Part shown: one piece after another, positions 2,531 to 58,175 of the stretch | Numbering within the stretch: the first letter of the stretch is position 1 | Layout: the number at the start of each line of letters is the position of its first letter | Assembly (NCBI RefSeq): GCF_014898055.3 | Contig: NW_023601322.1 | Span: 71,824,740 to 71,888,739 of the forward strand | Origin: Talpa occidentalis | Taxonomy: Eukaryota > Chordata > Mammalia > Eulipotyphla > Talpidae | Length of the DNA: 64,000 nt | Direction: 5' to 3' | The notes under the pieces: generated by a model | Told to the model about the DNA's origin: nothing | Databases searched by the model: none | What the model saw: the letters and a program-made list of their open reading frames with translations, nothing else | Program-made: the position numbers and the translations under genes

Positions 2531-3271
2531 ATGCCAGCCTCTCTGGAGACCTGCCTCTCGGACCTCGACTGCTCCAGCAACAGCAGCAGCAGCAGTGACC
2601 TGTCCGGCTTCCTCACGGACGAGGAGGACTGTGCCAGACTCCAACCCCCGGCTCCCGCTTCGGGGCCATCCGTGCCGGCCCGCAGGGCCGCACCCGAAAT
2701 CCCCGGGACGTCAGATGCTGCCGAGGCTCAGGACGAGGAGCAGGAGCGGCGGCGGCGCCGGGGCCGAGCGCGAGTGCGTTCCGAGGCGCTGCTGCACTCG
2801 CTGCGCAGGAGCCGGCGCGTCAAAGCCAACGACCGCGAGCGCAACCGCATGCACAACCTGAACGCGGCGCTGGACGCGCTGCGCAGCGTGCTGCCCTCCT
2901 TCCCCGACGACACCAAGCTCACCAAGATCGAGACGCTGCGCTTCGCCTACAACTACATCTGGGCTCTGGCGGAGACGCTGCGCCTGGCAGACCAGGGACT
3001 GTCCGGGGGCGGTGCCCGGGAGCGCCTCCTGCCGCCGCCGCAGTGCCCTCCCTGCCTGCCAGCGCCCCCGAGCCCCGCCAGCGACGCCGAGTCCTGGGGC
3101 TCTGGTGCAGCCGCGTCCCCCTGCGCCACCGCCGCGTCGCCGCTCTCTGACCCCTGTAGCCCCGCAGCCTCCGAAGACTTCGCCTATGGCCCCGGCGACC
3201 CCCTCTTCTCTTTCCCCGGCCTGCCAAAAGACCTGCTCCACAATGCACCCTGCTTCATCCCTTACCACTAG
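2531..3271 (+). CDS. NEUROG1: Neurogenin-1, proneural bHLH transcription factor
   Basis: The 246-residue product is a nuclear activator that dimerises with E proteins and binds E-boxes to commit progenitors to neuronal fate (cranial sensory ganglia, inner ear, dorsal spinal cord, telencephalon); this role is known for the family. Seen here: an acidic, serine-rich N-terminus (about 1-35), a basic run RRRRRGR at 73-79 that may be a nuclear signal, and a bHLH at about 95-150. The basic region [12 protein letters not shown] includes Glu103, the E-box contact residue, and is neurogenin-type; helix 2 reads [16 protein letters not shown] Pro/Ser/Ala-rich tail ends in CFIPYH, the NEUROG1 C-terminus. 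The ATG at 2531 has A at -3 and is the first ATG after the predicted start site; the frame is open back to 2363 but without an ATG. Human NEUROG1 is 237 residues; the extra length lies in a serine run (16-22) and the Ala/Ser-rich tail near 195-215. No damage is seen. NEUROG2 and NEUROG3 fit less well at both termini. Confidence 0.97.
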
Positions 3272-20519: not shown

Positions 20520-21145
20520 TTGAATGTCCTTAGGCATTTATAGCTTTCTCTCTGCTACGGGCAGCAGTTTTAATAAGTCGCCCTGTCCAGATTCCCCTAA
20601 TGATACGCTTTCTACATAAAAAAGGGTTTGTGAAACCTAATTCCTCTGACAGAAGCAAGCTCAGGTCTCTGAAGCAGCGAAGATTTCAGATTTCCGCTGG
20701 GTTTCCTTGCACCTGCCCTTGCGAGGCATGAGGTTTTGTGTGCAGAAGCCTCCAGGGGTTGAAATTTAGCCCTGTCCATGTAGCAGGAAGGTCAGCCGAA
20801 GTCACTGGGTCCCAAGACACTGGACTTCAATCTCCGACCAAAAACAAAACATCAAAACACTTCCATTCACCGGGACGTGCTTAGCAGCGCGCTGGCATTT
20901 ACAAATGTAACGCAGCACCGAGCAGCTCTGAGAAGGGGCTCTGCTTAGAAAGTCGATTGTTCTTCAGAGATCTGACAACCTCTATCAGATCTGTGTCAGC
21001 CGGGCTCCAGCAAACACTCCAGAGAAAGCCAGTCTCCTCCAGGCCGAGCCCTGGCTGCCACCTGATACCTGAATGAGAAGCAGAGCCAGCAAAATCCAAA
21101 CTCCTTTCGGGACTTCTGTTTGTGTAGGAGACGGTTTTGACTTTC
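20520..21145. promoter_or_regulatory. Candidate conserved non-coding element
   Basis: A repeat-free block with retained CpGs in an otherwise CpG-poor neighbourhood. Sites seen: CCTAATGATACG near 20596, CACCTG E-box near 20711, GTCGATTGTTCTT SOX-like near 20951, and two copies of an AGATCTGA/CAGATCTG phrase near 20968 and 20985. No open frame of note. The regulatory role is inferred from composition only. Confidence 0.35.
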
Positions 21146-26561: not shown

Positions 26562-29299
26562 GATGGATTTACAAATGAATTCTACCAAACATTCAGAGAT
26601 TAATTAGTGCCTATCCTTCACAAACTCTTCCAAAAAATTGAGAAGGAAGGGACAATACCAAACACGTTCTATGAAGCCAACATTACAATAATACCAAAAC
26701 CGAACAAGGACAACACAAAAAAGGAAAACTGCAAGCCAATCTCCCTAATGAACACTGATGCAAAAATCCTCAATAAAATTTTAGCTATCAGAATCCAACA
26801 ATGTATCCATAAGATAATTCACCACGACCAAGTAGGATTCATTCCAGGGACACAAGCATGGTTCAACATGCGAAAATCAATCAACGTTATCCAACACATC
26901 AACAAAAAGAAATATAAAAACCATATGATAATATCAATAGATGCCGAGAAAGCTTTCAACAAAGTGCAACACCCATTCACGATAAAAGCCCTTGAAATTC
27001 TTGGGATACAAGGAACATACCTCAACATCATAAAGGCCATCTATGACAAGCCAACAGCCAGTATCATTCTCAATGGTGAAAAGCTGAAAGCATTTCCATT
27101 AAGATCTGGAACAAGACAAGGATGTCCACTCTCACCACTGCTTTTCAATATAATACTGGAAGTCCTAGCCAGAGCAATAAGACAAGAGAAAGACATCCAA
27201 GGAATCCAAATAGGAAAAGAAGAAGTCAAACTATCACTGTTTGCAGGTGATATGATAATATACATAGAGAACCCCAAAAGCTCCACAGAAAAACTAATTC
27301 AACTCATTAATCAGTTCAGTAAAGTGGCAGGATACAAAATCAACACGCAAAAGTCAGTAGCCTTCTGGCCTCCCCGGTGCCACAGCGGTTGAGCGCTGGT
27401 TGTGAAGCTGCCCGTGGCCTCTGCGGCGCCAGTTTGATCCCCGGCTGCTCCCCGGCCACCGGAGGAGGGTCCCACATGGCGCGCAGACCTCTCCTGCCGC
27501 CCGCTGCTCCCCTCAGCAGTGTACTTCGGTCCTTCTGCCTGCTCTGCTCCCCGCTCTGGCTCTGGTGAATTCTCTCCCCCTCCCGCGCTTCTGACTGTAC
27601 CCAGTGCATGTATAAACAAAACAAAAATCAAATAAATAAATAAATAAATAAAACATGCCTCTATAAAAAAAATAACTATGAAAAGTCAGTAGCCTTCCTA
27701 TACACAAACAATAAATCTGAAGGAGAAGAAATAAAAAAAACCATCCCTTTTATTATTGAAACAAAAAAAATCAAATACTTGGGAATAAATCTAACAAAAG
27801 AGGTAAAGGAACTATACAAAGAAAACTATAAAACACTGTTAAAAGAAATAGAAGAAGACACAAAGAAATGGAAAGACATCCCCTGCTCATGGATTGGAAG
27901 AATAAACATTATTAAAATGGCCATCCTACCAAAAGTAATATACAGATTCAATGCTATTCCAATAAAAATTTCAATGTCATTCTTCAAAGAAATAGAACAA
28001 TTATTGATGAAATTCATATGGAATCACCAAAAACCCAGAATAGCCAAAGTGCTCCTGAAAAAAAAAGAAGGGAATGGAGGCATCACACTCCCAGACTTCA
28101 AACTATACTACAAAGCCATAATCATCAAAACTGCATGGTATTGGAACAAGAACAGACACACAGACCAATGGAATCAAATAGAAAATCCAGAAATAAACCC
28201 ACAGCTTTATGGTCAACTAATCTTTGACAAAGGAGCAAAGAATATGCATTGGAGCAAAGAAAGTTTGTTCAATAAATGGTGCTGGGAAAACTGGGTCGCT
28301 ACATGCAAAAGAATGAAGCTTGACCACTACCTCACACCATGCACAAAAACCAACTCAAAATGGATTAAAAAACTAGACATAAGACCTGAAACCATAAAAC
28401 ACATAGAAGGAAATATAGGCGAAACATTACATGATATGCACATCAAAGACATCTTTACAGATACATCACCCAAAGCAGTGATAGTGAAGGCAAAGATCAA
28501 CAGCTGGGACTACATCAAATTAAAGAGCTTCTACACAGCAAAAGACACAATAACAAAAACAAAGAGAAACCCCACTGACTGGGAGAACATTTTTGCACAC
28601 AACACTAATGATAAAGGACTGATCACAAAAATCTGCAAAGAGCTGATGAGACTCAACAACAAAGAAAATAATCCAGTCAAAAAATGGGCAGAAGAGCTAA
28701 GAAGAAACTTCTCTGAAGAGGAAATGCAAATGGCCAACAGGCATATGAAAAAATGTTCAACATCACTTGTAATCAGGGAAATGCAAATCAAAACTACCAT
28801 GAGATACCATCTCACACCAGTGAGAATGGCACATATTTAAAAAACTAGCAACAACAAATGTTGGTGAGGATGTGGAGAAAAAGGAACTCTCCTGCACTGC
28901 CGGTGGGAGTGCAAACTGGTCCAACCACTATGGAGAGCTGTGTGGAGATTTCTGGACCTACTAAAGATAGAGCTTCCATATGATCCAGCAATTCCACTCC
29001 TAGGTATTTACCCAAAGGACACAGAAACATCAATTCCAAAGAGCATCTGCACCCCTATGCTTATAGCAGCACTGTTTACAATAGCTAAGCTTTGGAAACA
29101 ACCCAAATGCCCAAAAATAGATGACTGGATCAAGAAGATGTGGTACATATACACCATGGAATATTACTCAGCATTCAAAAAAGATAAACACATGCAATTT
29201 GCAGCAACATGGATGGTGCTAGAAGGGATCATGCTCAGCAAAACAAGCCAGAAAGAAAAAGAAAAATACCAGATGGTCTCACTCATAGCAGGAATCTAG
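26562..29299 (+). pseudogene. LINE-1 ORF2 remnant (reverse transcriptase), disabled
   Basis: ORF2p supplies the endonuclease and reverse transcriptase for retrotransposition; the endonuclease half is missing here through 5' truncation. The RT part includes [24 protein letters not shown] and [15 protein letters not shown] motifs. The catalytic box at 27240-27251 reads FAGD where the family has FADD, so one catalytic aspartate is gone. A SINE plus target duplication (332 bases) breaks the frame at 27366; the frame resumes shifted by exactly that length after 27697. In-frame stops follow at 28838-28840 (TAA) and 28865-28867 (TGA, probably CpG decay). The C-terminal Cys region (CWWECKL-like, then DDWIKKMWYIYTMEYYSAFK) ends at 29299. 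It cannot act on its own. Confidence 0.93.
27366..27680 (+). mobile_element. tRNA-derived SINE, subfamily A (long-tail variant), inside LINE-1
   Basis: TGGCCTCCCCGGTGCCACAG start, GTTTGATCCCC box B, tail CCCAGTGCATGTATAAACAAAACA then (AATA)n. The 17-base phrase AAAAGTCAGTAGCCTTC is perfect at 27349-27365 and 27681-27697: a textbook target-site duplication. The perfect duplication and high GC/CpG content make this one of the youngest SINEs here, and younger than the L1 it broke. Confidence 0.98.
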
Positions 29300-29530: not shown

Positions 29531-30184
29531 ATTCATCCATCACCCACACTTTGACCAAACACACTATGCACTGTGCTGGGATGCAGAAATCTAAGATGAA
29601 ATTGCTTCTTGCTTCTCCTCCTCCTGGGGGTGGGGGTGAGGGTGGGCTAATGATACCTCTCCTCCAATAATGAGGGACCAGCTGAGCAATTCAAAAAGAA
29701 TAAACTTTCAGGAGAGTTTTATCCAGGATGTTCCTTTCTTACCACTGAAAGTCAACAACCCGGAATCCCTCAGTCTTGAGCAAGCCAAGACAGTAGGGAC
29801 CGTTCCTGGGGGAAATCTTGGGATCTGAAGTATTTACAAAGGGATGAGAAAGACAAGCCTGGGTCATCGGATTCAACCTTGCACTTCCTCTGGGACCCAG
29901 CTGGAGCCCAGACTCCTCCTCCCACCTCCCTGTTCCTGTAAGAAAAGATATTTGTCAGAACCTAAGGTCAAACCAGCTGTTGGGGGGCAGGAGGACATTC
30001 TTACTCCACTGGAGCAGGTGCTGCTCTCATTCTTCCCCTTTGCCACTCCTTCAGCAATCAGTGGGTTTTATTTAACTGATAATCAAAGGTCAGCTTCCAA
30101 ACCGCATCCCAGCTTCCCTGCCACCAATGCTAGGGAGGAAAAGCTGCAGTGACACCTTGGATCCAAATTCCAAAGCATGAAGGT
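29531..30184. other. Intergenic, no gene seen
   Basis: Unique sequence; the 102-codon frame at 29844-30152 has no recognisable domain. Confidence 0.5.
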
Positions 30185-30440
30185 GCCCTGGTCTAATGCT
30201 AGCTCTTCAGGTTCTGGCTTCATCATTACCACCAAATGGTGATTCTGCATCACTCTGCAGTTTGCAAAACACTTTGCCTATAATGGCTCTTTGGGGTCTT
30301 AGGGAAACAGAATCATCTTTTGTCTCCATTTTACAGATGGAAACAGACTAAAAGGCACGGGTCAAGAGAAAGTGGCTGCATTAGAGCTGAAACGAGGTCT
30401 GACACCAAGCCTCCCGTGGCTCATGATGGCTCTCAAAAGT
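30185..30440 (+). mobile_element. MIR SINE, partial
   Basis: GTTTGCAAAACACTTTGCCTATAATGGC, then GTCTCCATTTTACAGATGGAAACAGAC, fit the MIR core. Confidence 0.6.
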
Positions 30441-31689
30441 GTTCTAAGAACAACAGCACAACAGAGAAGAAGTCAAGAAGGAATCACCATTTTAGACCTC
30501 CCAACTCCCTCAAAAAATATATCATAATCCTAGAAAACACACTCAGCAGATGGTTGATTCAGGAATAAATTTAGGGCTGCCAGATTTCCTCCACCACAAA
30601 AACCTGACACTTCTGCTCCCCCACTGCCTCTCACACAGGGTAGGAGATGAGGATCCTAGATGAAAGCCCAGCACCAGGCTAGCGGCCTTAGGTGTGTGGA
30701 GGAGGTTGGGGTGAGTGGGGGTGGGGAATGCAGAAGATGACAAGGACTCCAGGCCCCGCACATTGAGTTGAAGGACTCCCTATCACCCTCAAAGGGAGGC
30801 TTAAGACACTTGCAGACTTTCCCTAGAGGCTTGCCCCAAAGTCCCCAGGCTGGGCATGACAGATGTGCCTCCCTTTAACTGAGAACTGAGTCATTTGGCT
30901 CAAAAGAAAAAGCACACAGCTCATCTTTCGCTTCTCTGGCAATGAACCCAGGGTGGGGAGGGAATGGGTTCAGGGAACTGATAAATCCCATTCTGAACCA
31001 TGGCTCTGTGGGGGGAGGGGGTGTGCACATGTGAATATGTGTTTGTGCGTGTGTGTGTGTGTGTGCACTCGTGTATAAAGACTCTGCAGAAAGGGTCTCA
31101 AGCAGGGCTTGAATTTGTTTGCCAAGATCATCTACTTGATGGGACCCCGTGAAAATGGCTAGACTCTGTACTAGAAGTTGTTGGGTGGGCAAAGATGGGT
31201 GGGCAGACTCTGGTCTCCAGGGGAAATGGATCATAAAACCACTCTCTTTGTCCCATGTGTACACTGAGCCAGGCAGAGTAGGAGCTAGGAGCTATGGGGA
31301 GGGGGGGAAGTCAAGGAAAAGTCTTTGTTTCATTTCCCATGGGTAAGAGAGGAGAGGTGGTAGAGCTCATCGGCATGAGCCCCTCCCCCAGTAGAAGAAA
31401 GCAGGTACTAAGAGGGCAGTGGATCAGATCTCCACACGCCTTGCCTTCTACCATGAGACAAATGTAGGTCCCAAGGTCTCCTCCACTGGCAATAACTAGG
31501 GCAGGCCAAGGGAAAGGGAGCGCAGGCTGCCCTTCCAGATTGGACTGGGAGGATCCCAGGGTGATGCCCAGTATAGCACTGCCTTTCATAATTCCTCTCC
31601 TTGGCTGCTGGGTCCCTGTCCAGCGTCCTTTCCAACCCCTGCCTATCTCACCCATTCTAGTATGTCCTACCAAAGGTGACCAGCAGTTT
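30441..31689. other. Intergenic with (GT)n
   Basis: A (TG)n tract lies at about 31036-31066. Overlapping open frames on both strands (30875-31264, 31311-31673) show no family features and share no splice context; I treat them as chance. Confidence 0.5.
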
Positions 31690-32115
31690 TTAAAATATCA
31701 GTGTGACAAGCTCATTCTTTGTTTAGATATTTCTAGAGCTATGAAATCAAAATCTTACAGGATAAAATTCCAGACTATTTATCTCTTCTGCCTGTCTAGA
31801 CTCAAGTCTCTCCATGACCTTCACATGCTTTCTATAACTTCAGGCTTTTACCCAGCAAATTCCTCTGCTGGGACTTCCCTTGCCTGCTTCACATCCTTCA
31901 CACCCCAACTCCTAAATCTCAGATTGCGTCACCTCCTTCTGTATCCCTTTTTCTCCAGGACTTGCTTCTACACTGCACTGACCTCACTGTTCCAGAAGTA
32001 TGGCCTTATCTGTCTGTCTTTCCTTCTCAACTGAGCCAAGAACTCATTTCATTATCTCTGTAAGCCCAGGACTGGCACCTAGTATGATTCAAAGGTTTGA
32101 TGACTAACTGAAAGT
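31690..32115 (+). mobile_element. L2 LINE 3' part
   Basis: Pyrimidine-rich L2 text: CTCTCCATGACCTTCACATGC, CACCTCCTTCTGTATCCC, CACTGCACTGACCTCACTGTTCC, ending CCCAGGACTGGCACCTAGTATGATTCAAAGG. The 164-codon frame at 31540-32034 overlaps it and is a by-product. Confidence 0.75.
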
Positions 32116-32324
32116 GCTCTTGAGTTAGCAAATTAACCCCACTACTCCTCAACTTCCTCAGGAAGATTTCTGGGTGATGTCTGGGTTGCTTGCAGGCATC
32201 CACATCAGAGGAACCTCAGCGTGGGGTACACTGCATAATTCTAGCAAGGACACATTCCTGGTGTATTATTCCTCACATGCTGTTTCAGGAGTCAGCCATC
32301 TCCTAATTTCAAAATGAAACCAAC

Positions 32325-32460
32325 ATCTTTTTTGAGAGCTTGTTATATGAGATGCACTTTATATTCATATCTCATTAAATCCTTAAAAGAACTCAGCAAT
32401 ATTCTATTTTTCAAGTGAGGAAACTGAGGCATACAGAAAGGCATTAAGAAGCTTCCTTTT
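32325..32460 (+). mobile_element. MIR SINE
   Basis: TATGAGATGCACTTTATATTCATATCTCATTAAATCC followed by AAGTGAGGAAACTGAGGCATACAGAAAGG. Confidence 0.75.
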
Positions 32461-32712
32461 AGAACACAAGAGAATATGGTGATGGCTCATGGGTGATACG
32501 GTGGTGGGACAACTACAGGGACTACACCTGAGGGGAGAAACCAATTACTATACAAAACTGAACATAACCTATGAAAATTAAACTAATTTAAAAACAAAAA
32601 GAAGCTTCCTTTTTTTTTTCCATTGGAGTGAAAGTATAGAATCATGTCCCTCAACTATTTCTTACTAACTACCCTGAAATATAAGTGGGTCTTACTTAAA
32701 AAAAAAATCATA

Positions 32713-32982
32713 GGGCCTCCCTGATGGCACAGGCAGTTGAGCGCAGTGCTCTGAAGCTGTCTGCAGCCTCTACAGTGCAGGTTCAATCCCCGCTGGCCTC
32801 AGAGCAACCCACAAGGCAAGCAGAACTCTCCAGTCTCGCCCGCTGCTCCCCTCAGCAGTGTATTTCGTCAATCTGCCTGTTCTGTTCCCCACTCTGTATC
32901 TGGTGAATTTGAATTCTCTCACCTTCCCGCACATCTGGCCTGTACCCCAGCTCTTATATAAATAAAATAAATCTTAAAAAAA
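32713..32982 (+). mobile_element. tRNA-derived SINE, subfamily B
   Basis: GGGCCTCCCTGATGGCACAG start, GTTCAATCCCC box B, CTCAGCAGTGTATTTCG middle, CCAGCTCTTATATAAATAAAATAAATC tail. AAAAAAATCATA flanks both ends. Confidence 0.94.
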
Positions 32983-33054
32983 ATCATAAAACATAGCAAG
33001 TCAGAGGCAGTGATCACTAGTTCCTCCTTCACCCCCTGCAGACTCTGGGCAAAT

Positions 33055-33190
33055 GTTTCAATTAAATTAATGCAATTTAACAGATAACTAGTAAGTGCCC
33101 TCTGGGTGGCAGGGACTATTCTGGACACTTGGCAGATGAAAAGGACAAATAGTACTGCTCTCAAAGGGCAGAGAAAAAAGGACAAAGAAC
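33055..33190 (+). repeat. Ancient interspersed repeat fragment
   Basis: GTAAGTGCCCTCTGGGTGGCAGGGACTATTCTGGACACTTGG followed by AAAAGGACAAATAGTACTGCTC resembles the ancient repeat also seen at 18945 and 52455. Confidence 0.5.
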
Positions 33191-33403
33191 AATGCACAGA
33201 AAATAAAGTGTATGCAGCAGATCCTTCAATGTTTTGTCACAACATTGATGGGAGGAAAAAAAAAATTCCTGGCTGGGGCCACTGTCTGTGTGGCACAGTC
33301 ATGTTCTCCCCAAGTTTGAACGGGTTTTCTCCAGACATTCCAGTTCCCTCACTCCACCCCAAAGATGGGCACATTAGGTTCATTATCGTGTCAATGGTCC
33401 CAG

Positions 33404-33406
<3 letters not shown>

Positions 33407-33454
<48 letters not shown>
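33407..33454. repeat. (GT)24 microsatellite
   Basis: Uninterrupted GT dinucleotide, 48 bases. It gives rise to Val/Cys and His/Thr frames on the two strands, which are not genes. Confidence 0.98.
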
Positions 33455-33456
<2 letters not shown>

Positions 33457-33644
33457 AGGACGCCTGCAATGGACAGGAATCTTGTCCTGGGTTGGTCCCC
33501 GCTTGCATCTTGAGATACTGGGGCAGGCCCCAACATCTACCATCCAGAACTGGAACAAGCACCTTGGAAAATGGATGGATGGACTGGCAGACAGACAGGT
33601 GGGCAGATGGATAAATACAAATGATTGTTTGAATATTAGAAGTG

Positions 33645-33921
33645 GGGGCCTCCCTGGTGGCGCAAGGGGTTGAGACACAACCTATGAGGCTGTCCGCAGC
33701 CACTGCAGCATGAGTTCGATCCCCAGCCAGGGAGCAACCCACATGCACAGCAGACCTCTCCTGTCTCACCTGCTGCTCCCCTCAGCAGTGTATTTCAGTA
33801 GATTTGCCTGTTCTGCTCCCCACTCTGTCTCTGGTGAATCCTCTCACCCTCCACACCTCTGGCCTGTACCCCAGTGCTTGTATGCATAAATAAATAAATC
33901 TTTGGAAAAAATAAAATAAAT
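33645..33921 (+). mobile_element. tRNA-derived SINE, subfamily B
   Basis: GGGGGCCTCCCTGGTGGCGCAAG start, GTTCGATCCCC box B, tail CCCAGTGCTTGTATGCATAAATAAATAAATC (a mix of A- and B-type marks). TATTAGAAGTGG and TAGTAGAAGTGG flank it. Confidence 0.94.
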
Positions 33922-34370
33922 AGTAGAAGTGGCTGGGGTCTTCAAAAGACGTTTGGTGATGTTTTGTTACCAGAGATACCGCCTGGGAACTTCACTCTTG
34001 TTTGTATCCGTTAACTTCTGGTAAAATTAGTTTCTCTATTGAGTATTTTGCTTAAAGTGGAAGTTTCCAAGAACTCAGGGAGGACCTACTGCCCTCAAGC
34101 AGAAGCCCGCACACACTCTCACCTCCTGTCACACAGGCCCCGGGGAGAACCCCACACGGGGCGGGTTACCCTGGAGGTCACTGCAGAAATGACCGTGTAC
34201 GACCCCCACACTGAGTCAGGAACGACCAGGTCTTTCTCTCAGACGCTGACGGAGGGGGGAGAAGAGGGTAGGCAGGGAAGCGGGGTACCAAGTCACCTCC
34301 TTTGAGGCCCCTCAAGTCGCCAGCGAAGAGATCCACCGCGTGAGGAAGTGGGGCTCCCGCCAGCTGCCAG
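33922..34370. other. Intergenic next to the orphan CpG island
   Basis: Unique sequence. 34100-34310 is moderately GC-rich; frames on both strands are short. If the minus-strand exon candidate at 34378-34482 is real, this is the start of its first intron. Confidence 0.4.
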
Positions 34371-34377
34371 CACTAAC

Positions 34378-34482
34378 CTCCAACCAGATGATGGGGGGGC
34401 CTATGTGAAAGCAGTCTAGCCAGTGCACCCCCTTGTCAGGTGTCCTCACAGGACCGCCGGGCGCAGCTGTCTGGAGCGTCAT
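34378..34482 (-). CDS. Possible first coding exon of an unrecognised gene
   Basis: On the minus strand an ATG at 34482-34480 has the full Kozak context GCCGCCATG. It opens 35 codons (MTLQTAAPGG..., with HWLDCFHIGPP late in the frame) that end at a splice-donor-like GAG|GTTAGT with the GT at 34377-34376, leaving phase 0. Reading past the donor gives a stop after about 20 more codons. The exon lies at the edge of a small CpG island with promoter-type motifs 45-120 bases upstream. I do not recognise the peptide and see no second exon. It could be the 5' end of a small gene whose other exons I cannot find, the remnant of a duplicated 5' end, or chance. NEUROG1 lies in the direction this would be transcribed, 31 kb away. 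Confidence 0.35.
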
Positions 34483-34612
34483 GGCGGCCTGAGCCGCGGC
34501 TGTCACCAAATCCCGCCCGCGCCTGCAAGTCTCGCGAGGTCACAGCAGCGACCCCCAGCTCGCGCATACCGAGGACCAGCAGACGGATGGCCGCACGTGC
34601 GTCTGGCAGGCT
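34440..34612 (-). promoter_or_regulatory. Isolated CpG island with housekeeping-type promoter motifs
   Basis: About 20 CpGs in 180 bases inside CpG-poor surroundings. Motifs seen: CCCGCCCGCGCC (Sp/E2F-like, 34513-34524), TCTCGCGAGG (34530-34539), close to the TCTCGCGAGA core-promoter element of many TATA-less genes, and a CACGTG E-box (34594-34599). The order fits a minus-strand promoter with start near 34510-34540 and a very short 5' UTR. No such promoter is known to me between NEUROG1 and TIFAB. Confidence 0.5.
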
Positions 34613-34689
34613 TGCTAACCAAGGGAACTTTCCTTGGAGACAAGTCTGGGCCCCTGGCCTCTAGAACCTCAAGTCTATATCGGATTTAA

Positions 34690-35160
34690 TGGGGTTCAGT
34701 TATATATTCAGTCCAGGTGGTGTCAATAACACAATCCTCTCTTGGGTTGAGTCCTGGAAGCTGATCCTAGCACACTGCAATGGTGGGTGGCACCCACGTT
34801 CCAAGGACAGGGGAGCCTCTGATGGCTCCACAGCTCCCAGTCAACCAGCACCTGCGTCCTCTACATGACTTCCTCCAACCACAGACCAGTGGATTATTTA
34901 AAAAATCCTAGAAATTTCTTTCTGACAATTCTACAGATTGAAACTCCAAGACAGGGTTGCCAGCACAGTTGGGTTCTGGTAAGGGCGCTTTTCTGGGGGT
35001 GCAGAATTACTTCCTGTCATGGTGGAGACTCCCTGGGGTCTCTTTTATAAGGGCACTAATCCCATTCATGAGGGTGCCTCCCTCATAACCTAATCACTTC
35101 CTAAATGCTATTCAGATAAAGGATTTTCACCTCCTTACCCAGGTTCTAGGAATGCAAGAT
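34690..35160 (-). mobile_element. MaLR-type LTR, reverse
   Basis: Minus-strand landmarks: ATTCTACAGATTGAAACTCC near 34928, CAGGGTTGCCAGCACAGTTGG near 34952, TCTTTTATAAGGGCACTAATCCCATTCATGAGGGTGCC near 35040, and CCTCATAACCTAATCACTTCC near 35083. The left limit is uncertain. Confidence 0.7.
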
Positions 35161-36274
35161 AACTTCAAGGTTCTAATTTACAGCAATCTGATTTGCAGTT
35201 TTCTAGAAACATATAGACATAAAAAGCTACAACCTGCCTAAGACATGACATCAGAGTCCCAGGAGTAAAACTCTTCTTCCTCTGAATAGTCATGGCTATG
35301 GCTACTCTTTGATTATGCTTTTCTTATCTAAACACCTACTGTGTGTCAGGCTTAGGTTGAGTTCTAAGAATACAGAAAGGAAAGACCAGTCCCATTTATC
35401 ATTCAATAATGTTTGTGGAACACAGATGAGCTGCCCTGGAATGGGTTGCTAAGATACTTAGGGGGGTTTCATCTCAATCTTCAAATATCCCTTGACCATT
35501 TAAACCCCCCCCCAAAAAAGGAAAGAAAATATACCTCCACTAATGGGATACCTCTTGAATTTTCAGGACCAGTCAAGGAAAATGGCTTGCTGCTCTCCTC
35601 ACCCTATCTCCCACCTCCATCCCCAGGTCTCATTGGGCTTTCTGTGGGTCAGATGGATTGTTCCAATCTTGCCTCCTTGGAACCAAGGACAGGGAGGCCT
35701 GAACCACTGACCATGTCAGGCACAGTGGGCTGGGGGTGACGGACTTGTGCCTGTGAAGTCCCACACAAAAGGAGTCTTACTGATTATTCAGGGCAGCAGT
35801 GTAAATATTTAGAAAAAGAAGTCCCTTCCTTAGAAGGTCAGCCTTTGTCTTCTTAAGACTGAAAGGACTTGGTCTGATGGGGGGTCTGAATACAATGGAA
35901 AGGAGAACAGAGCCAAAGCAGCAGCAGCCAAACCAGTGCCATGGCCTACATGATGGAAGAGACCCACAGTGTAGAGAGAACTGAACCAACCACCAGAGTG
36001 AGGGAATCTTCGCTGGAATTCTCCAGGACACCCGCAGGGACCCTTTGCACATGGCACCTTAAGACGTCTTCAGCTCTCCCAAAGGGCTAAGAATTGTGCC
36101 TTGTAAAATGTCTATGAATCTTTCTGTAAAAGCAAATATTCCCAAGATTCCAAAGAGTAGAAAGGGCTCTGAAAACGGCTCTGAACACACTTGATGCTTC
36201 CTCAGTCCCCTCTTTCCCAACCACAGTTGCTCTTCTGTCTTCAGTTAAGCCACTCAGGCAGCCAGTTTCTTCTT
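35161..36274. other. Intergenic, no gene seen
   Basis: A fragment at about 35315-35405 (AAACACCTACTGTGTGTCAGGCTTAGG) is another ancient L2/MIR-age repeat. The 108-codon frame at 35413-35739 has no recognisable domain. Confidence 0.5.
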
Positions 36275-36545
36275 TGTATAAATTAATTAATTAATTTCTT
36301 ACATCGTTGTAGTGCCCATAGTTCTCCCGCCACCAAATCACCCTTGAACTAGCACCATATTCCCTTGTGTTCATTCCTCCCCTGTTCTGACCCCCCTCCC
36401 TCCCTCTCCTTTGCTGGATGCCTCAGATCTATGGTCAACTAGTTTTGACTTTTTCTTGACCTTTTGATTGGTTTCTCTATATTCTATACATAAGTGAGAC
36501 CATCTGATATTTATCTTTTCTGACTTATTTTGGGCAGCCTGTTTC
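36275..36545 (-). mobile_element. LINE-1 3' end fragment, reverse
   Basis: CTCTATATTCTATACATAAGTGAGACCATCTGATATTTATCTTTTCTGACTTATTT is the usual reverse L1 3' end text; a C-rich CCCCCCTCCCTCCC run at about 36390 corresponds to the G-rich 3' UTR tract. Confidence 0.8.
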
Positions 36546-38519
36546 TTGAACAAGTCTCCTGGGCCCTCCCCTGGCAGCTGATCAGGAATTCTGCGTGTTT
36601 AAATTCCTCCCATTCCTGACTCTTCACCTTAAGACTTTCCGACTTGGCTCCTAGAGGGAAAACCTTTTAAGCCCCCTCATGGTAAGAGGCCATTAGGGTC
36701 CCATCAGGGAGGTAAAGATTTGTCTCAAAAATAATGGATTAGGTTCCACCTGCCCAAGGTAATTAAGAAGACGAGGCCCTCCTTGTGCCTGTCTTGGGCC
36801 TGTCTTGATAGATGCCAACTTGAATGGTGACTGTTAGCAGGAGGCACTAACTTACAGAAGGGAAATGGAATCCATATCTTGAAGCCTAGATCAGTCCCAA
36901 CTAGTCATGTCTCAACACAGGTTTTGTTTTATGAATGGTCTGACCTGACTCACTGGCAAGAAGTGCAGTATTGGTGACACCTTCCCTGCCCCTCAGATCT
37001 CTCAGCAAAGCTCCTGGATGTGAAGAACCAGAAGTGATTCCCAGGCAGCTTATGGAAAAGACTACAGTTTGGGGCTGTCTAGTACTTTGTTATATTAACC
37101 CTTGTTTTCTGTTTCTGGTGGTCCTCCAAGGAAACTGCATTTCTGATTTGACAAAAGTTCAGAAAAGTAGTACTCCACTTCTACAGGGAAGCATAAAAAG
37201 TGAGGAAACCTGCATGAAAGCATTTGTGCATCACCCACCCCTGCCATTAGTTGAAGTCATTTCAATGCTATAAGGGCTGCAAGCCCTCAGGGCTGGCAGG
37301 ACACTGAAGGCTGCTCACCCATTTCTATTTCTTGATACTCTGGAACCTATTGGCCCTCCAGCCTAGAAAGACAGTGCCTGTTCTACCAAGAGAAGTAGAT
37401 ACTTATCCCATGTGCCACCCAGTATCCATTTGCCCATCAAAACAACATTTCTGTTTATTTGGGGGCTACTGCCAACTCTAGACAGTCTGGGTGAAGCGCT
37501 AAGTTCAGGTGTCTGTATGTCATTGCTGAAGCTACAGAGCCATCCGCACAGCCAACCCGACACACGCACGGAATCAGCCAATGTTCTCTGCTGACTTTGA
37601 GTCTTAGCCAGTGGCCCAGGTAGAGCATGCACTGCCCAGGTTGTTCCTTGAATGTCCTTATTTCCTGATGCTCCAGACCCCAGACCTCCACTGCAAGGGG
37701 ATAGATAGATATTAACTGTAATAGATATGCAGATCTCTTCCAACATCAGGAGAATAAAGGGTACCCAGTAATCCCCCTCTGAAAGGGGCCAGATAATGAA
37801 AATGGGGAGCTGAGTATTTGGTGAAGTGAGAGAATTGGGATGAAAGTTGAAGAGGGACAAATAATATCTATTAGGAAGCCACTGGAGTAGCGAATTGAAG
37901 TCACTAACACTGCTGACATTCATTGACATTCAAACCAGGCACCAAGTGGGAGCCCTGCATGAAAAAGTTCACAATCAAAAACTCCTCTTTTAAAACAAAC
38001 AAACAAACAAAAAAAAACCAATCATCTTTTAAATTCCTAGGTGCCTTTTTAAAAAGTCAAAGCATAGTCATTCAGCCAGCATCCTCAAAGGGCTAGTAAT
38101 AGGGCCATCAACAGAGGTTTCCCCAACACCCACTCCATGCCACTTACCTTTTGGTGTCCAAGCACTGACCCCACCCCTGCCCTCAGAAACTGCCTCATCA
38201 ATCACAGCCCCACACCATGAGTGTCTATGGAAGCACAAACTGAATGACAGAAAGGAAAATGGGGGTGACCTGTTCTGGGTAGGGGGTATGGCCAGGGAAG
38301 GTAGGCAAATGTTCCAATCTCAGTTTCCCCAGATCTTGCAGCCTCCTGAAGGCAGCCCACTTGGAAGTCCTTGTGGTCTCACAGCCCCTTCTCCCCAAAG
38401 GGAGCTCCCTTTTAGCCCAGGGCATTCTTAGGAGCAAAGGGCACTTCCGAGAGCCTTCCTTGTTTCCCTAAGGCTGCCTCCCTGACAGGTTAGGAAATTG
38501 ACTCATTAGGATTTCATCC
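36546..38519. other. Intergenic, no gene seen
   Basis: Mostly unique. A (CAAA)n tract lies at 37996-38012. The 188-codon reverse frame at 37363-37929 has many low-complexity features absent and no domain; it is interrupted by repeat-like text and is not supported as a gene. Confidence 0.45.
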
Positions 38520-39000
38520 ATCTTTTCACGGCCCATCTCCCCCCCCCCTCCACCTCCTGCTCCCTTCTGTGTCACTAAATCAACAGCATCCTCTCACTGG
38601 CCTCCCTAATTAGAGGAAGGCCTGTTCTGTGTGCTGGCAGACCAAGCAACCTGGAATCACCTGGTCACCAGCACACTCACCTGCAGCGCTTTCAGACGGG
38701 TGGGCGAAGGGCAGCCCAGCAGCCCCCACCTAGATGAAACAGGGGCTGGAGGCCCTGCTCCCGACCTGTCAATCACGGCTTAGTCCGCAGCTGCGCTCTC
38801 GGCAGCGCCAGCGCACTGCTACTCTGAGGGAGATAAACATCGAGAAATCTAATCCAGTGCGGCTTCAGAGATAAACAGATGTGCTGGCCGCCATCGGTCA
38901 GGAGATAACGCCCCCGCCCCGCCCCACGCGCCCGCCTGGCCCTGCACCTGCCTGAGGCGACCCGGATGAGCCTCTTGGGAGGCAGGCTGCGTCCCCCCAG
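38520..39000. promoter_or_regulatory. Candidate long-range enhancer with PBX/MEIS and GATA sites
   Basis: Repeat-free block with CpGs and a dense set of sites: CACCTG E-boxes near 38657 and 38678, TGTCAATCA (38767-38775), a PBX/MEIS-type core, CAGCTG near 38790, three GATAA cores (38832-38836, 38870-38874, 38904-38908), CAGATG (38876-38881) next to the second, and a CCCCGCCCCGCCCC box near 38911. E-boxes beside homeodomain cofactor sites suit a neural enhancer. Function and conservation are inferred, not shown. Confidence 0.45.
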
Positions 39001-40430
39001 CCTGGAGAAAGGGTCTCCAGCACCGCGAGTGGGGGGCGGGGGGTGGAGCCAGAGAAGAAAGAAACTAGGTTTGTTACAAATTCGACAGAGCCGGTGTTTG
39101 GAACTAACAGCCTGGGTTAGAATCTGGCTCCGCAGCTCTGACAGGTGACAGCAAATCTGCACCTGGATTGTTCTCATCAGGTTGGAATAATCACGTACCA
39201 CTTCATTCGAACCGTACCGTTGCCATTAAAAGAGGTCGCACCAAGTAAGCCTCAGTAGATAGTGGTGGCCAAACTCAGCCAGCCTATCAGCCAGCAATCA
39301 CTGTAGACACTATTGGGGGGCATTGAACGTGGCCCCAGACGTTTTAGGTGAGGGAAAGAGTTTTGACCCCCTAGAGGGCCTGCACAGCCTCAAAAATGAC
39401 AGCCCCAGGCTGACACAGCAAATAAGTGGAAGTGACACCATGGTGAGGAAACAGGTTGGGAACATAGGGTTGGGGACAAGCGGGTTGGGGGTAGTGCTGG
39501 CAACGGAAGGTTAGTCCTTCCGTGGCACTTGAAGCTCCATAACCTGGCCTATGCGAGCTTGGGAGACTTCCCTGCAGAGCACCCCACATAACTCATTAAT
39601 TTATTCCACAGACACGCAGGAACACCTCTAAGGTCCATTTCTTTCTAGGAGTGAAATATGGCCCCTGCCCTCAAGGTAAAATTTAGGTACTTAGCAGGGA
39701 TCATAGGTATCTGCAAGCTATACACCTCCCAGCTAGCCAGCCCTACAGTCCCCCCTCCTTTGGTGAGGCCATTTCTTCCCTACCCCCAGGGACTGGATTA
39801 ACCCAATTTTTGCTGAGGTATGAAGGGTAGAAGGACCTCTGGGGCTATAACTAATGTAGTATGATTTCTGTCCCTGAGACCACCAGGCTAGACGTTCAGT
39901 GAGGGTAGGACATACCCCATCCTATATCCCACCCTCGGTGTCAGCATTTGTGGGTGATACGGATGTGGGTCACACAGCTCGTGGATGAAGTGAGGGGGAA
40001 GACCTGGCTATCAGGCCACGTGCCTACACAAGCGTACAGAGCACATTTAGATTGGCAGATGGGCCAGCAGGACTAGTGGATGGGCAGGAGGCTGTGGCCA
40101 CTTGGCCACATGCTAGGGACCGGGGAACTGAGTCTGCCCCTAAACTGGCTTCTTTTGTTAGTGCTCCCTTCTTGGCCAGCCTGTGTTGGGAGAAGGGTCT
40201 GGAAATGCCAGAGCCACCAGGATTGGGAGGTCCTTGTGGCCACGTCAGACACAGGGGTTGAGGTGGAGCTAAGGACTGCACCCTCAAGCCCCTGGCGCCT
40301 CTGCTGGAGAGGCTAGACACAAATACCTGGACTTAAGCCCCTGGATCTCTGAGGGATGCCACAGGACAGAGACTCCAGACTCCCAGAGCAGTGCAGGGTG
40401 CGAGTCCGCTCTCTTCGCTGCGTGGAGTGC
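39001..40430. other. Intergenic, no gene seen
   Basis: Unique sequence between two candidate regulatory blocks. Frames at 38773-39201 and 40024-40320 show no domain. Confidence 0.45.
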
Positions 40431-41165
40431 ACAAAGGGCACATAGTGCGTACTAGTTAAAAAGTTATTAGTCCCCTCCCGCCAGTGTGATTCCACTTTGT
40501 TTCTGTGAGGACGGAGTGAACCTTTCATGCTATTGCGCAGTGGCGATTTAGCGCAGCTTTTGTGAACCTGAAAGGAGCTGTAGCCTCTTCTGGGGTGCGT
40601 GTTCCCACTACATCAACTTCCGAGGCATCAGGGCCCATGGTTCCCAGAGCCACTGCACCCTACAGCCGGTTTTCCCTGCGTGGCAGCTGGGGCCGATGGC
40701 ACAAACCGCTGAACCAGAGCAGCCCTCAGGCCTCGCTCGCGGAGGCCCTCACCTCCTTCACCAAAGTGAAAAAATGCGCGCAGACCTTTTACCTCTACTT
40801 GGGGGTAATTGGACTGGGTTTAAAGAGCTATTAAGGCCTGGAGAGGCCGCTTCTCTCTGAATAGCTTTGTGCAATGTTTGCAGAGACATTTGCATCTGTT
40901 TGCACTTGGGGAAACGGTCTTGAAGGCTCGGTAGCCAGAAAGAGCAAGGATTGTTTTGTCTCTACCCCTCCCGGCTCCGCTCTGCGCCCGGCAGCTTCGT
41001 GAGCCCAGCAGAGGCATGCAAAACCCGCCCGGTTCAAAGATTGGGCGCCCTCGCTCTCAGTCCACATTTAAACAATTGCTGTTAACAATGCAATTTTAAG
41101 CAGAAAATCGTCTAACTAGATTAAATCCACATGCCATAAAAACCAGGGAGAGAAAAGTCCGTATC
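40431..41165. promoter_or_regulatory. Candidate conserved enhancer block
   Basis: Repeat-free, with retained CpGs and AT-rich core motifs: GGGTAATTGG near 40804, GAGCTATTAAGG near 40826, TTTGCAGAGACATTTGCATCTGTTTGC near 40877 (includes a GCATCTG E-box and POU-like ATTTGCAT), AAGGATTGTTTTG SOX-like near 40946, and ACAATTGCTGTTAACAATGCAATTTTAAG near 41072 with paired SOX-like ACAAT cores. A 90-codon frame at 40562-40834 has no recognised domain. Inferred enhancer. Confidence 0.42.
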
Positions 41166-41199
41166 GGCACAGGAGTGCAGACGCCTAACAGGATAGAAA

Positions 41200-41960
41200 G
41201 TGTGAAATGCATGCAGAGGTGGAGCGACAGGCAGGTGCCTTGGCCTCCCTCTCGCCGGCCAAGGACGGGATGCTGCCTCCCTTCAACCCCGACGCCTCAG
41301 CAGAGGAAGGGGCTCCCGGGGGAGCAGCAAGGGAGGCTGGTCTCCCACCTTCTGCCACCCGGGGCGGGGTGTGTGTGTGCCTGAAGTCCAGTCCTTGGCC
41401 CCCATCAGCCTCCCCCACTCCCCGCAGATCCCGCGAACTCGCCCGAGCTGTGCGCGCCCGCCCCTCCCTGCCCTCCCCGGAGCTGGGGGCGCAGAGCAAG
41501 CCTGGGGAAGCCGGAACGCCCTCTCCACTCGCGAGACTGAGCAGACAGGCTCTTTAATAGAAACGAATCAAAGTCAGGCCTTAGAAAGCCCATTGCTATG
41601 GCAGCAGAGTTCTCTGAAAGCGACAAAGCCCAGAACCCCTCCCTCCTGTCCCCTCACCCCCTACCCCCGCCCTGCCTGGAGCCACGCTCGGAGCGCGCTC
41701 GGACGGGTTAATCACTGTAAAAACAAAGAGATGAAAGGCTCTCCAATTGGGTAGCTCTAGGCGGCCTCCTCCCGGGTCTAGGGAGAGGGCAGAGGAGGGG
41801 GCCGCTGGGGCCTGGCTTCCCTGGAGAGCTCGGAAGGCTCTTCAGCCGGGTGGGAGCCACGTCCCACCGTCCCCAGGCGGCGCCGCCCACACAATCTGGC
41901 GCCTCCCGAAGGGTCTTCAAGGCAGTTGGACCAGCACAGACCGTCCCCCTCCACCACACT
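41200..41960. promoter_or_regulatory. Orphan CpG island
   Basis: CpG-dense stretch, 38 kb downstream of NEUROG1. Contains CTCGCGAGA at 41528-41536 (reverse of TCTCGCGAG), an X-box-like TTGCTATGGCAGC near 41593, and GGGTTAATCACTGTAAAAACAAAG near 41705. Overlapping frames on both strands (for example 41207-41557) are low-complexity Pro/Ser/Ala/Arg and typical of CpG islands. It could be an enhancer-associated island or the promoter of a non-coding RNA. Confidence 0.5.
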
Positions 41961-41989
41961 CCTGCCCCGACCTGCAGTCACAGCCCCCC

Positions 41990-42330
41990 AAAAAAGCTAT
42001 GCACAAAAACCCTGGGCTTTTTCATGATCCCTAAGGAAATATTTGGGAGGAGGAGTCGGGGAGAGGGGGGGAGAGAGGGGGAGAGAGCCTGTGAATTACT
42101 AGTTCTAGAAAACAAAAGGGCCACACAAAATTGAAATTAATAAGCATGTATTATATATTTGTAATATGATAACCTTGTCAATTCGTCAAGTGTAAATCAA
42201 TGTATGTAGTTCTATAAAAATTAAATTTAAAATGGGATGTGGAGGCATTTTTATATCTTCGATATTTTGTGTGGTGGGGCAGAGAAGGAGTCTTTAAAGG
42301 CATCAAAGTTTCTGTGTAAACTCCACCTGG
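41990..42330. promoter_or_regulatory. Candidate AT-rich conserved element
   Basis: Sharp switch from GC-rich to AT-rich, repeat-free: GTGAATTACTAGTTC near 42091, AATTGAAATTAATAAGCATG near 42128, CAATTCGTCAAGTGTAAATCAATG near 42179, and CTTTAAAGGCATCAAAGTTTC near 42291 (TCF/LEF-like ATCAAAG). Homeodomain-rich; function inferred. Confidence 0.35.
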
Positions 42331-43774
42331 GAGCCAGGGGCATGGAGTGCAAAGTCAATGGGCCCCTGTTTATTCTGTAACTGGTTCATTGGAGTCCCTG
42401 GCCCCTCCTCGCTGCTCATCTCAGCCCCACTCTCCTGCTCCTGTCAGGGAGCAGACTGTCAGGGTTCTCAGACACCTTCCCTCCCACCACCCCATCTCCA
42501 TTAGTGAGATGGAGACCCTGAGATGGGAAGCAAGGCAGGGACATGTCTGATCGCTCATCAGTAAAAGGCCAGGCAGGCATGGGCCTGTGGTCTCCAGCTG
42601 GTGGTCTTTCCTCCCACCCAGTTCAGAGTTTCTGCCCTACAGAGGATGAGGCAGTGTGAGGGGAAGAGCATAGAGAGACTCCATGCCATAGGCCTGCGGT
42701 CCAGAACTCCACAGTCGAGCTTTCCAGAGACTTTCTCTCAGGTATGAGAAGCCCCTAGGCTCCTGGAGGGATCTGGGAGCTGGTCCTGGCCTTGGAGCAC
42801 TGCCTCACTACAGCTGATTGCAGATATATATACGTACACATATATAAGTATCTTTTAAGTTTGTAGGTCCAGGACCACCCCAGTGCCCAGTATCATGTAA
42901 ACCAGTGTCATCCAGTCCCTTCGCTATATTAGCAAATCTTTCAAAGTAAAAAGAGCACCCCCCCCCATTCATTCCCCACACAGTAACATCACGCAACCAA
43001 ATTCATTACCTCAAATCTCCTGATTTAGGGTCTCGAGACTCAGATATTCCCATGGTCAAGAATAATAGTAAGAAAAATCTCTTCCTGTTTCTGGGCCTCA
43101 GTATCCCTATAATAAGTGAAATTCATGGAAAACTCTGGATAGTGAATGAGAGGAGACATGGCAAGAAAGGCCGATGCCTGGCCTGAATGAGGCCAGTTGG
43201 CTCTCCCTGGCACTGCGGATGCTTGGGATCAGCAGTTGCGTCCTCGGTGGTCACCCAGTGTGAGACAGCTCTGCACTGGACATTTTCCTCTCTCTGTTCT
43301 GATGAGGCCACTTTACTGGAGTCCCCAGGTTATTCTAGGGGAATCTCTGGAGCAAGATTCCAAGGACAGAAATGGAGAGGGAAGAGTCACTCTCCATGAG
43401 CTTTGCTCTCAGCCCCCTCCCTACCTTGAATGAGGCAAAGGTTTCTCTGTCCTGTTTGCTTCTCTGGGGACTGCCATCTGTGCCTGATTACCCCATCCAT
43501 CACTGCTGAGGAGGGGGCTGCTGAGCCCCAGTGGGAGAGGGAATAGTGTGGAATCACCACTACCAACTCAGTCTCCAAAATCCCCATAGGAAGGCTGCTC
43601 AACCCAGTCACTGCATCCATTTCCCTGGCATTGCATTGGGCACTATTGAGTCCTAGGACCCTCTTTTAGGTCCTGGCGGGAATGCAGCCAGGGTCCAGGT
43701 CATCAGAGCAACATCTCCATCTGCCTTGAAAATCTTACTTTCATATCTGTTTTCTTTCCTGGGGGACATAAGCT

Positions 43775-45043: not shown

Positions 45044-45372
45044 TTTTTTTTTTTTAATTTTTTTAAGAGCCATGTATTTTTATTTATTTATGATTTTTTA
45101 TTTGTTTGTTTGTTGTTTTGTTTATACATGCACTGGGAACAGTCAGAAGCGCCGGAGGGTGAGAGAATTCACCAGAGCCAGAGCGGGGAGCAGAGCAGGC
45201 AGAAGGACCGAAGCACACTGCTGAGGGGAGCAGCGGGCGGCAGGAGAGGTCTGCGCGCCATGTGGGACCCTCCTCCGGTGGCCGGGGAGTAGCCGGGGAT
45301 CGAACCCGCACCACAGAGGTCGCAGGCAGCTTCGCAACCCAGTGCTCAACCGCTGCGCCACCGGGGAGGCCC
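45044..45372 (-). mobile_element. tRNA-derived SINE, subfamily A (long-tail variant)
   Basis: Reverse copy with a long T/A tail at left, GTTTATACATGCACTGGG, and CGCCACCGGGGAGGCC at right. TAACCTGCCAAG is perfect at 45032-45043 and 45373-45384. The tail (ATGTATAAACAAAACAA in sense) matches the SINE at 27366, so these two share a subfamily. High CpG content and a perfect duplication point to a recent insertion. Confidence 0.97.
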
Positions 45373-45404
45373 TAACCTGCCAAGTTTTACAGTCAGCTAT
45401 GGAG
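45373..45404 (+). mobile_element. MIR SINE, right part
   Basis: CCTGCCAAGTTTTACAGTCAGC resumes the MIR broken by the SINE. Confidence 0.65.
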
Positions 45405-45408
45405 CCAT

Positions 45409-46005
45409 TGTTATAGGACAGGGAGAGGGTCAGCCCAAGCCCCGCAAACCTGCCTATTCTAAATGGGTTCTGCCATCCGCCGCATCAACACAAAACATAG
45501 GAGACTTTAATGGGAAGGAACTTTAATAAAACTAGGAAACAATACAGGTAAGGCAAAGAGTCTAGTTTCTAAATGAAGCACCTAAAGTTACCCGTCCCCT
45601 CGTGGGTAAAAGTCCATCCATATGGGATTGGCCCAGAGCAAGGCCCCAAAGCCTGCCACAAGTCTAAAGCATCTTCCAGTGGGGACCCACAGAAAAGGGT
45701 CACAAACAACTGGACAAGCCCGGAAGGAAAAGAGCAAAATCAACATCAAGATAAAAGCTGCCATTGTCACCTCCCCACGGGTCTCACCCACATCTGTGTC
45801 ACCCAGTCCACGACCAAAAGACAAGCGCAGTTTCTTTACATGTCTCTAGGCTCCATGTGCCTCTTCCAGGTCTCCTGGCTCCATCCTGCTTCCTTCCTTC
45901 CTTAGTCTCTTCTCCAGCTTCTCCTCTTCCTGCTCAGCTCCACCCTTCCTTGGGTGGGGCAGGGAACCTGGAACCTCCCCCTTTCCTGGGGACCACCCTG
46001 TTGCA
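45409..46005 (-). mobile_element. Solo LTR of an endogenous retrovirus (- copy)
   Basis: Read on the minus strand it runs TGCAACAG...CTATAACA. CCAT is perfect on both sides (45405-45408 and 46006-46009), a 4-base target duplication typical of class I ERVs. A poly(A)-type ATTAAA lies near the end. Homologous to the + copy at 44130-44781 in opposite orientation; the differing lengths come from several small gaps. The LTR landed beside the MIR at 44900. Reverse and forward frames inside are not genes. Confidence 0.82.
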
Positions 46006-57606: not shown

Positions 57607-57787
57607 CCTGTATATAAGAATTTCCTTTTTAAGGCTGAATCATATTCCACTGCAAGCATACACCACATTTTGTTTATCCATGCATCCATCAACATTTGAG
57701 TTATTTCCACATTTTGTTTGTTAAGAATTATGCTGCTATGGATATGGGTGTATAAATATCTCTTTGAGTCCCTGATTTCAATTCTTT

Positions 57788-58055
57788 TTTTTTTTTTTAA
57801 AGATTTATTTATTTATTTATACAAGCACTGGGTACAGTCAGAAGCGCGGGAGGGTGAGGGAATTCACGAGAGCCAGAGGGGAGAGCAGAGCAGGCAGACT
57901 GACGAAGTACACTGCTGAGGGGAGCAGCGGACGGCTGGGGAGGTCTGCGCACCATGTGGGACCCTCGCCCGGTTGCCGGGGATCGAACCGGTGCTGCAGA
58001 GGCTGCAGGCAGCTTCGCAACCCAGCGCTCAACCGCTGCGCCACCAGGGAGGCCC
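57788..58055 (-). mobile_element. tRNA-derived SINE, subfamily A
   Basis: Reverse copy: TTTATTTATTTATTTATACAAGCACTGGG at left, CGCTGCGCCACCAGGGAGGCCC at right. CTGATTTCA(A/G)TTCTTTT flanks both ends (one change). Confidence 0.96.
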
Positions 58056-58175
58056 TGATTTCAGTTCTTTTAGATATATATCTAGAAGTAGAAATTCTGG
58101 GTCATTTGGAATTTTATGTTTAATTTTGATTCATTTTTATTGTTTTTTTTCCCCTTTTTATCCAAAGTCTGGAAG

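What the first reader, a model, noticed from the sequence alone, without database searches (positions are those of the whole stretch)
34371..34612. Orphan CpG-island promoter with a Kozak ATG and splice donor on the minus strand
Inside CpG-poor intergenic DNA there are about 20 CpGs in 180 bases with a TCTCGCGAGG element, a CCCGCCCGCGCC box and CACGTG, laid out as a minus-strand TATA-less promoter. About 50 bases downstream is GCCGCCATG opening exactly 35 codons that end at GAG|GTTAGT. I cannot match the peptide to a known gene, and no gene is known to me between NEUROG1 and TIFAB. It could be a lineage-specific gene, a gene lost or unannotated in human, or the relic of a duplicated 5' end.
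Basis: partly seen in the sequence, partly recalled or inferred. Interest (0 to 1): 0.75.

Follow-up and report, generated by a model that had tools for sequence, protein, structure and literature searches.

The report
Orphan CpG-island promoter near mole NEUROG1

Summary
The DNA features are real. The window is from Talpa occidentalis (Iberian mole): TIFAB lies 52 kb beyond the block and is 100% identical to the named T. occidentalis protein on a contig of the same length. At 34451-34612 there are 20 CpGs in 162 bases, observed/expected 0.98, one of three such loci in 164 kb. The core holds TCTCGCGAG (BANP-type), GGGCGGG, CACGTG and GCCGCCAT; 0 of 5000 shuffles had all four. This fits an orphan CpG-island promoter.

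The gene reading is not supported. GCCGCCAT is the YY1 octamer read backwards and supplies the 'Kozak' by itself. The donor is weak: 399 of 16489 GT sites score as high. Forty such ATG-ORF-donor arrangements, this one included, occur in 164 kb. The peptide has no Pfam, convincing PDB or protein-set match. The 242-base block matched only itself in the genome; the peptide-versus-genome search did not complete. Best reading: an orphan CpG island with noncoding initiation, or a CpG-island enhancer module near NEUROG1. Interest is low.

The parts
34141..34740 (.). CpG island by 200-base criteria (GC >= 0.5, o/e >= 0.6): 600 bp, 35 CpG, o/e 0.63, GC 0.61
34451..34612 (.). CpG core: 20 CpG in 162 bp, o/e 0.98, GC 0.71
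34530..34539 (+). TCTCGCGAGG, BANP-type 'CGCG' element (nine of the ten bases of TCTCGCGAGA)
   Evidence: for position; motif from PMC9363121 passages
34512..34518 (-). GGGCGGG, Sp1/KLF-type GC box (motif name recalled)
34594..34599 (.). CACGTG palindrome, E-box (motif name recalled)
34481..34488 (+).
   Evidence: role of TISU positions 5-12 in YY1 function from PMC2518114 passages
34562..34567 (+). GCGCAT, NRF1-half-like, weak (24% of shuffles have one); motif name recalled
34312..34482 (-). 56-codon ORF from the proposed ATG, stop included; codons 1-35 end at 34378; probably not a coding exon
34376..34377 (-). proposed splice donor GAG|GTTAGT, score 3.56 bits, weak
34121..34122 (-). better-scoring minus-strand donor (GAG|GTGAGA, 5.9), lying beyond the ORF's stop
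34979..34980 (+). plus-strand donor (CTG|GTAAGG, 5.4): the other orientation is as possible
38671..39280 (.). neighbouring CpG island with the window's other GCCGCCAT (38887 +)
40351..41890 (.). two neighbouring CpG-rich stretches (40351-41300, 41341-41890), the second with the window's other TCTCGCGAG (41528 -)

Best explanation
This is an orphan CpG island: a short TATA-less promoter-type element in the NEUROG1-TIFAB interval of the Iberian mole. Shown: the CpG cluster and the BANP-type, YY1, GC-box and E-box sequences. Inferred: the CpGs are kept because the core is unmethylated in the germ line, BANP/YY1/Sp1-type factors open the chromatin, and RNA polymerase II starts short or noncoding RNAs there in some tissue, perhaps in both directions. 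The 35-codon 'exon' is the by-product of a YY1 site plus a chance open frame, not a protein-coding exon.
For: CpG o/e 0.98 in the core against 0.15 just to the right, 0.07 and 0.20 in two wider flanking stretches and 0.50 in the left part of the island; one of three loci in 164 kb with at least 20 CpG per 162 bp, another being NEUROG1; four promoter motifs within 119 bp, 0 of 5000 shuffles; BANP motif described as enriched near the initiation sites of CpG-island promoters (PMC9363121, passages); TISU positions 5-12, here exact, described as the ones essential for its YY1-linked transcription role (PMC2518114, passages); about half of mammalian CpG islands are orphans, and 42% of human ones showed evidence of promoter activity, 60% if H3K4me3 is counted (PMC2944787, abstract and one section). 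Against coding.
Against: No transcription, methylation or chromatin data could be examined. No orthologous DNA from another mammal could be compared, so conservation is untested. The stretch 34371-34450 has no CpG and raised TpG+CpA (1.63), so only the core looks protected. Nine of 16 promoter or factor patterns scanned, full NRF1, CCGGAAGT, NFY and CRE among them, are absent from 34000-34800. The four motifs tested were chosen because they are present.
Confidence: 0.55

Rival explanations
1. The island is the CpG-island module of a distal (poised) enhancer of NEUROG1: it recruits Polycomb/CXXC proteins and tethers the enhancer to the CpG-rich NEUROG1 promoter 31 kb away; no gene starts here.
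For: CpG-island-like stretches at 34141-34740, 38671-39280 and 40351-41890 lie within 7.8 kb, in the neighbourhood of a developmental regulator with a large CpG island. Poised enhancers lie within 3 kb of CpG islands in 70-80% of cases, and orphan islands are proposed to tether enhancer and CpG-rich target gene (PMC8285398, passages). Orphan islands turn over widely between mammals and track enhancer activity (PMC11170920, passages).
Against: The core's motifs are of the housekeeping-promoter kind; no conserved enhancer core was tested next to it.
Confidence: 0.25
2. It is the real first coding exon of an unannotated gene on the minus strand, lost or unannotated in human.
For: ATG in a perfect -6 to -1 context, 35 open codons and a GT, just downstream of promoter motifs.
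Against: Kozak explained by the YY1 octamer; donor score tied for lowest of the 15 such cases in the window, and 40 such cases in 164 kb, this one included; no Pfam match and no PDB match better than E 1.6; no candidate in the protein set at 31-98 aa or about 106-337 aa (relatives must share three 5-residue words, so distant ones would be missed), a set that holds at least the TIFAB of mole, desman and star-nosed mole; 17 acceptors scoring at least 8 downstream within the window give no convincing second exon, the longest lying in AT-rich or repeat-like DNA (my judgement). Exons beyond the window were not sought.
Confidence: 0.06
3. It is a decayed duplicate of the 5' end of another gene.
For: A housekeeping-type promoter without a recognisable gene is what such a relic would look like.
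Against: The 242-bp block finds only itself in the 2.08-Gb genome at E <= 0.001 (which skips very common words and scores only the best candidates); CpG o/e 0.98 in the core speaks against long methylated decay. Peptide-level and longer-DNA searches of the genome did not complete.
Confidence: 0.04
4. A CpG-rich patch raised by GC-biased gene conversion, with chance motifs and no function.
For: GC-biased gene conversion is proposed as one source of orphan islands (PMC11170920, passages); conservation untested.
Against: Composition alone rarely gives the motif set (0 of 5000 shuffles with the same dinucleotides have all four), with the caveat that the set was chosen because it is there.
Confidence: 0.1

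Closest known systems
Orphan CpG islands (Illingworth et al. 2010, PMC2944787; abstract and one section seen)
   Same: CpG-dense, intergenic, away from known promoters, promoter-type sequence
   Different: No methylation, H3K4me3 or RNA data seen for this one; its core is short (162 bp)
BANP-dependent CpG-island promoters (TCTCGCGAGA; Grand et al. 2021, known to me here only as cited in PMC9363121)
   Same: TCTCGCGAG inside the CpG core, with GC box and YY1 octamer close by
   Different: Tenth base is G instead of A; no known gene starts here; binding not tested
YY1/TISU downstream promoter element (PMC2518114, passages seen)
   Same: Exact ATGGCGGC, positions 5-12 (letters recalled)
   Different: The first four positions differ from the recalled consensus; in the TISU orientation the frame is Met-Ala-Ala-stop, so it cannot serve as a useful coding start
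Poised enhancers with orphan CpG islands (PMC8285398, passages seen)
   Same: Distal CpG islands around a developmental transcription-factor gene
   Different: No chromatin or contact data for this locus

Membership tests
Orphan CpG island | At least 200 bp, GC >= 0.5, CpG o/e >= 0.6 | tested here: met
   34141-34740: 600 bp, GC 0.61, o/e 0.63
Orphan CpG island | Away from annotated promoters | tested here: inconclusive
   31 kb from the NEUROG1 ORF (identity recalled) and 52 kb from TIFAB; the human interval is described with three genes, none in between named. The mole annotation itself was not seen.
Orphan CpG island | Unmethylated in germ line or early embryo | not testable with these tools
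   Only inferred from o/e 0.98 in the core
BANP/YY1-type CpG-island promoter | CGCG element in a CpG island | tested here: met
   TCTCGCGAG at 34530 in the core; 0.2% of 5000 shuffles have one; the start site itself is unknown
BANP/YY1-type CpG-island promoter | Transcription starts there | not testable with these tools
   No RNA data held
Protein-coding first exon | Peptide related to a known protein or domain | tested here: not met
   TIFAB as positive control for the protein set
Protein-coding first exon | ORF and donor better than chance | tested here: not met
   15.8% of 1000 shuffles; 40 such cases in 164 kb, this one included
Protein-coding first exon | Conservation of ATG and donor in close relatives | not testable with these tools
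   No other mammalian genome held
Duplicated 5' end | Second, similar copy in the genome | tested here: inconclusive
   242-bp DNA search finds only itself; peptide and longer DNA searches unanswered

The most novel reading that the evidence does not exclude
A mole-lineage or otherwise unannotated gene, coding or long noncoding, starts from this BANP/YY1-type island on the minus strand and runs towards NEUROG1, where its transcription could influence NEUROG1.
Probability: 0.12. Interest if true: 0.5.

Novelty: new member of a known kind. Interest (0 to 1): 0.2.

Why it matters
If active, it adds one more orphan CpG-island promoter or enhancer module near a neuronal master gene, in a species with public gonad chromatin and RNA data (named in PMC10499028) in which it can be checked directly. 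It is also a worked case of how a YY1 octamer (GCCGCCAT) mimics a perfect Kozak start beside a promoter, a trap for gene finding by eye.

Tried and rejected
Coding gene: peptide and ORF searches in PDB, Pfam and the protein set, exon-2 search by acceptor score inside the window, chance tests: not supported. TIFAB inside the window: no hit better than E 0.5; found beyond it. Known RNA family: none in the window at Rfam gathering thresholds. Repeats: the stretch 34051-34740 matches only itself inside the window at E <= 1; the two tandem repeats found in 30000-43000 lie outside it. Poly(A) signals as a clue to direction: the nearest AATAAA/ATTAAA is about 4.5 kb away on the minus strand and 3.2 kb on the plus strand, which decides nothing. 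A first guess from recall that the SINEs were of a bat type (note) was wrong; the species is the Iberian mole. CXCL14 and macroH2A1 (recalled queries) gave no hit at E <= 0.001 in the 164 kb. A wider background sample of the contig was asked for and not given, so the 164-kb neighbourhood is the only background. Paper searches: 10 were used; only asked for NEUROG1 and TIFAB together, and I saw their listings, opening one paper of them (PMC3599919). I make no claim that nothing is in print about this island.

Full report
Setting. The window is G000:C280:71824740-71888739 of a 2.08-Gb genome. I fetched 40 kb to its left and 60 kb to its right. A TIFAB gene lies at window coordinates 86916-87398 on the plus strand (with a recalled human query). 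Its translation is 100% identical to the named Talpa occidentalis protein, which lies on a contig of 101,830,683 bases, the length of C280. So this is the Iberian mole. NEUROG1 is the plus-strand ORF ending at 3271 (identity recalled, not searched). The finding sits 31 kb downstream of NEUROG1 and 52 kb upstream of TIFAB. [quoted passage not shown] The mole annotation itself was not seen.

The observation. The stated elements exist. The 20 CpGs lie in 34451-34612 (o/e 0.98, GC 0.71), while 34371-34450, which holds most of the proposed exon, has none and raised TpG+CpA. By usual criteria the island is 34141-34740; its left part is only moderately CpG-rich (34061-34370, o/e 0.50). In 164 kb, five clusters at three loci reach 20 CpG per 162 bases: NEUROG1, an island 5-6 kb left of the window start, and this one.

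Promoter character. TCTCGCGAG, GCCGCCAT, GGGCGGG and CACGTG lie within 119 bases. In 5000 dinucleotide-preserving shuffles of the core, TCTCGCGAG occurred in 0.2%, ATGGCGGC in 1.6%, GGGCGGG in 6.9%, CACGTG in 8.0%, at least two of the four in 0.86% and all four in none. The four were chosen because they are present: of 16 patterns scanned, 7 have a hit in 34000-34800 and 9 do not, full NRF1, CCGGAAGT, NFY and CRE among them. The figure is therefore an indication only. The BANP motif TCTCGCGAGA is described as enriched near initiation sites of CpG-island promoters (PMC9363121, passages); here the tenth base is G. Both TCTCGCGAG and both GCCGCCAT occurrences of the window lie in CpG-island stretches between 34 and 42 kb.

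The start codon. GCCGCCAT read on the other strand is ATGGCGGC, the last eight of the twelve TISU positions (TISU letters recalled); positions 5-12 are described as the ones essential for its YY1-linked transcription role, and positions 1-4 as dispensable for YY1 binding (PMC2518114, passages). A YY1 site in this orientation gives a perfect -6 to -1 Kozak and the letters AT by itself; only the G is left to chance. None of 1000 shuffles had GCCGCC before an ATG with 35 open codons, which the YY1 site accounts for. Position +4 is A. In the TISU orientation (plus strand) the frame is Met-Ala-Ala-stop.

The frame and the donor. An ORF of at least 35 codons from any ATG occurs in 83.6% of 1000 shuffles of the 599-base block, and one with a donor at least this good after codon 20 in 15.8%. 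With a simple recalled position-weight table, GAG|GTTAGT scores 3.56 bits; 83 of 3428 GT sites on the window's minus strand and 399 of 16489 on both strands of the 164 kb reach it. Forty arrangements of an ATG with a purine at -3, at least 35 open codons and a donor at least this good in any phase at or beyond codon 35 occur in the 164 kb, 15 of them in the window, this one included; its donor score is tied for the lowest of the 15 as printed. Some of these share a frame, and real exons among them were not removed. Better donors exist at 34122 on the minus strand, beyond the stop, and at 34979 on the plus strand, so direction is open.

The peptide. The only PDB row is an antibody fragment at E 1.6. 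There is no Pfam match for three ORF products at E <= 10, and no candidate with three shared words in the protein set for the 56-residue ORF or for the 35 residues with longer candidates admitted. The set is suitable for mammals: TIFAB found 98 proteins at E <= 0.001 among 154 candidates, including mole, desman and star-nosed mole. A distant or differently sized relative would be missed. Seventeen acceptors scoring at least 8 lie downstream on the minus strand in the window; eight are open for at least 20 codons in phase 0 and none looks like a coding exon (my judgement). Exons beyond the window were not sought.

Duplicate. The 242-base block finds one place in the genome, itself. The peptide search and a longer DNA search of the genome were asked for repeatedly and not answered, so a diverged paralogous 5' end is not excluded.

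What it most likely is. About half of mammalian CpG islands are orphans; 42% of human ones had evidence of promoter activity, 60% with H3K4me3 counted (PMC2944787, abstract and one section). Orphan islands near developmental genes also serve poised enhancers (PMC8285398, passages) and turn over widely between mammals (PMC11170920, passages). Both fit here, with further CpG-rich elements within 7.8 kb. I put the orphan promoter with noncoding output at 0.55 and the enhancer module at 0.25; the two are not sharply separate. Shown: composition, motifs, location, no protein relative in the libraries searched. Inferred: germline non-methylation, factor binding, initiation. Public mole ChIP-seq and RNA-seq data (GSE219021, GSE218536; PMC10499028, passages) could settle it.

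Noticed in passing
window 40351-41890: Long CpG-rich stretch, 37-39 kb downstream of NEUROG1, with AT-rich homeobox-like words between CpG-rich parts; looks like a developmental enhancer cluster (impression, conservation not tested).
   Followed up: partly
window 38671-39280: CpG island with GC boxes, three GATAA words and a YY1 octamer at 38887; a second orphan promoter-like element.
   Followed up: partly
about 5.3-6.3 kb left of the window start (in L008): Very CpG-dense island (104 CpG in 1030 bp, o/e 1.06), roughly 8-9 kb upstream of the NEUROG1 ORF, with no gene identified by me.
   Followed up: no
window 27251-27660 and 57771-58140: CpG-rich stretches whose open frames share similar translated text, so probably copies of a SINE-like repeat rather than islands; 20721-21060 and 45071-45500 were not examined.
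   Followed up: no
window 26604-29299: LINE-1-type reverse transcriptase reading frames in several pieces (identity recalled).
   Followed up: no
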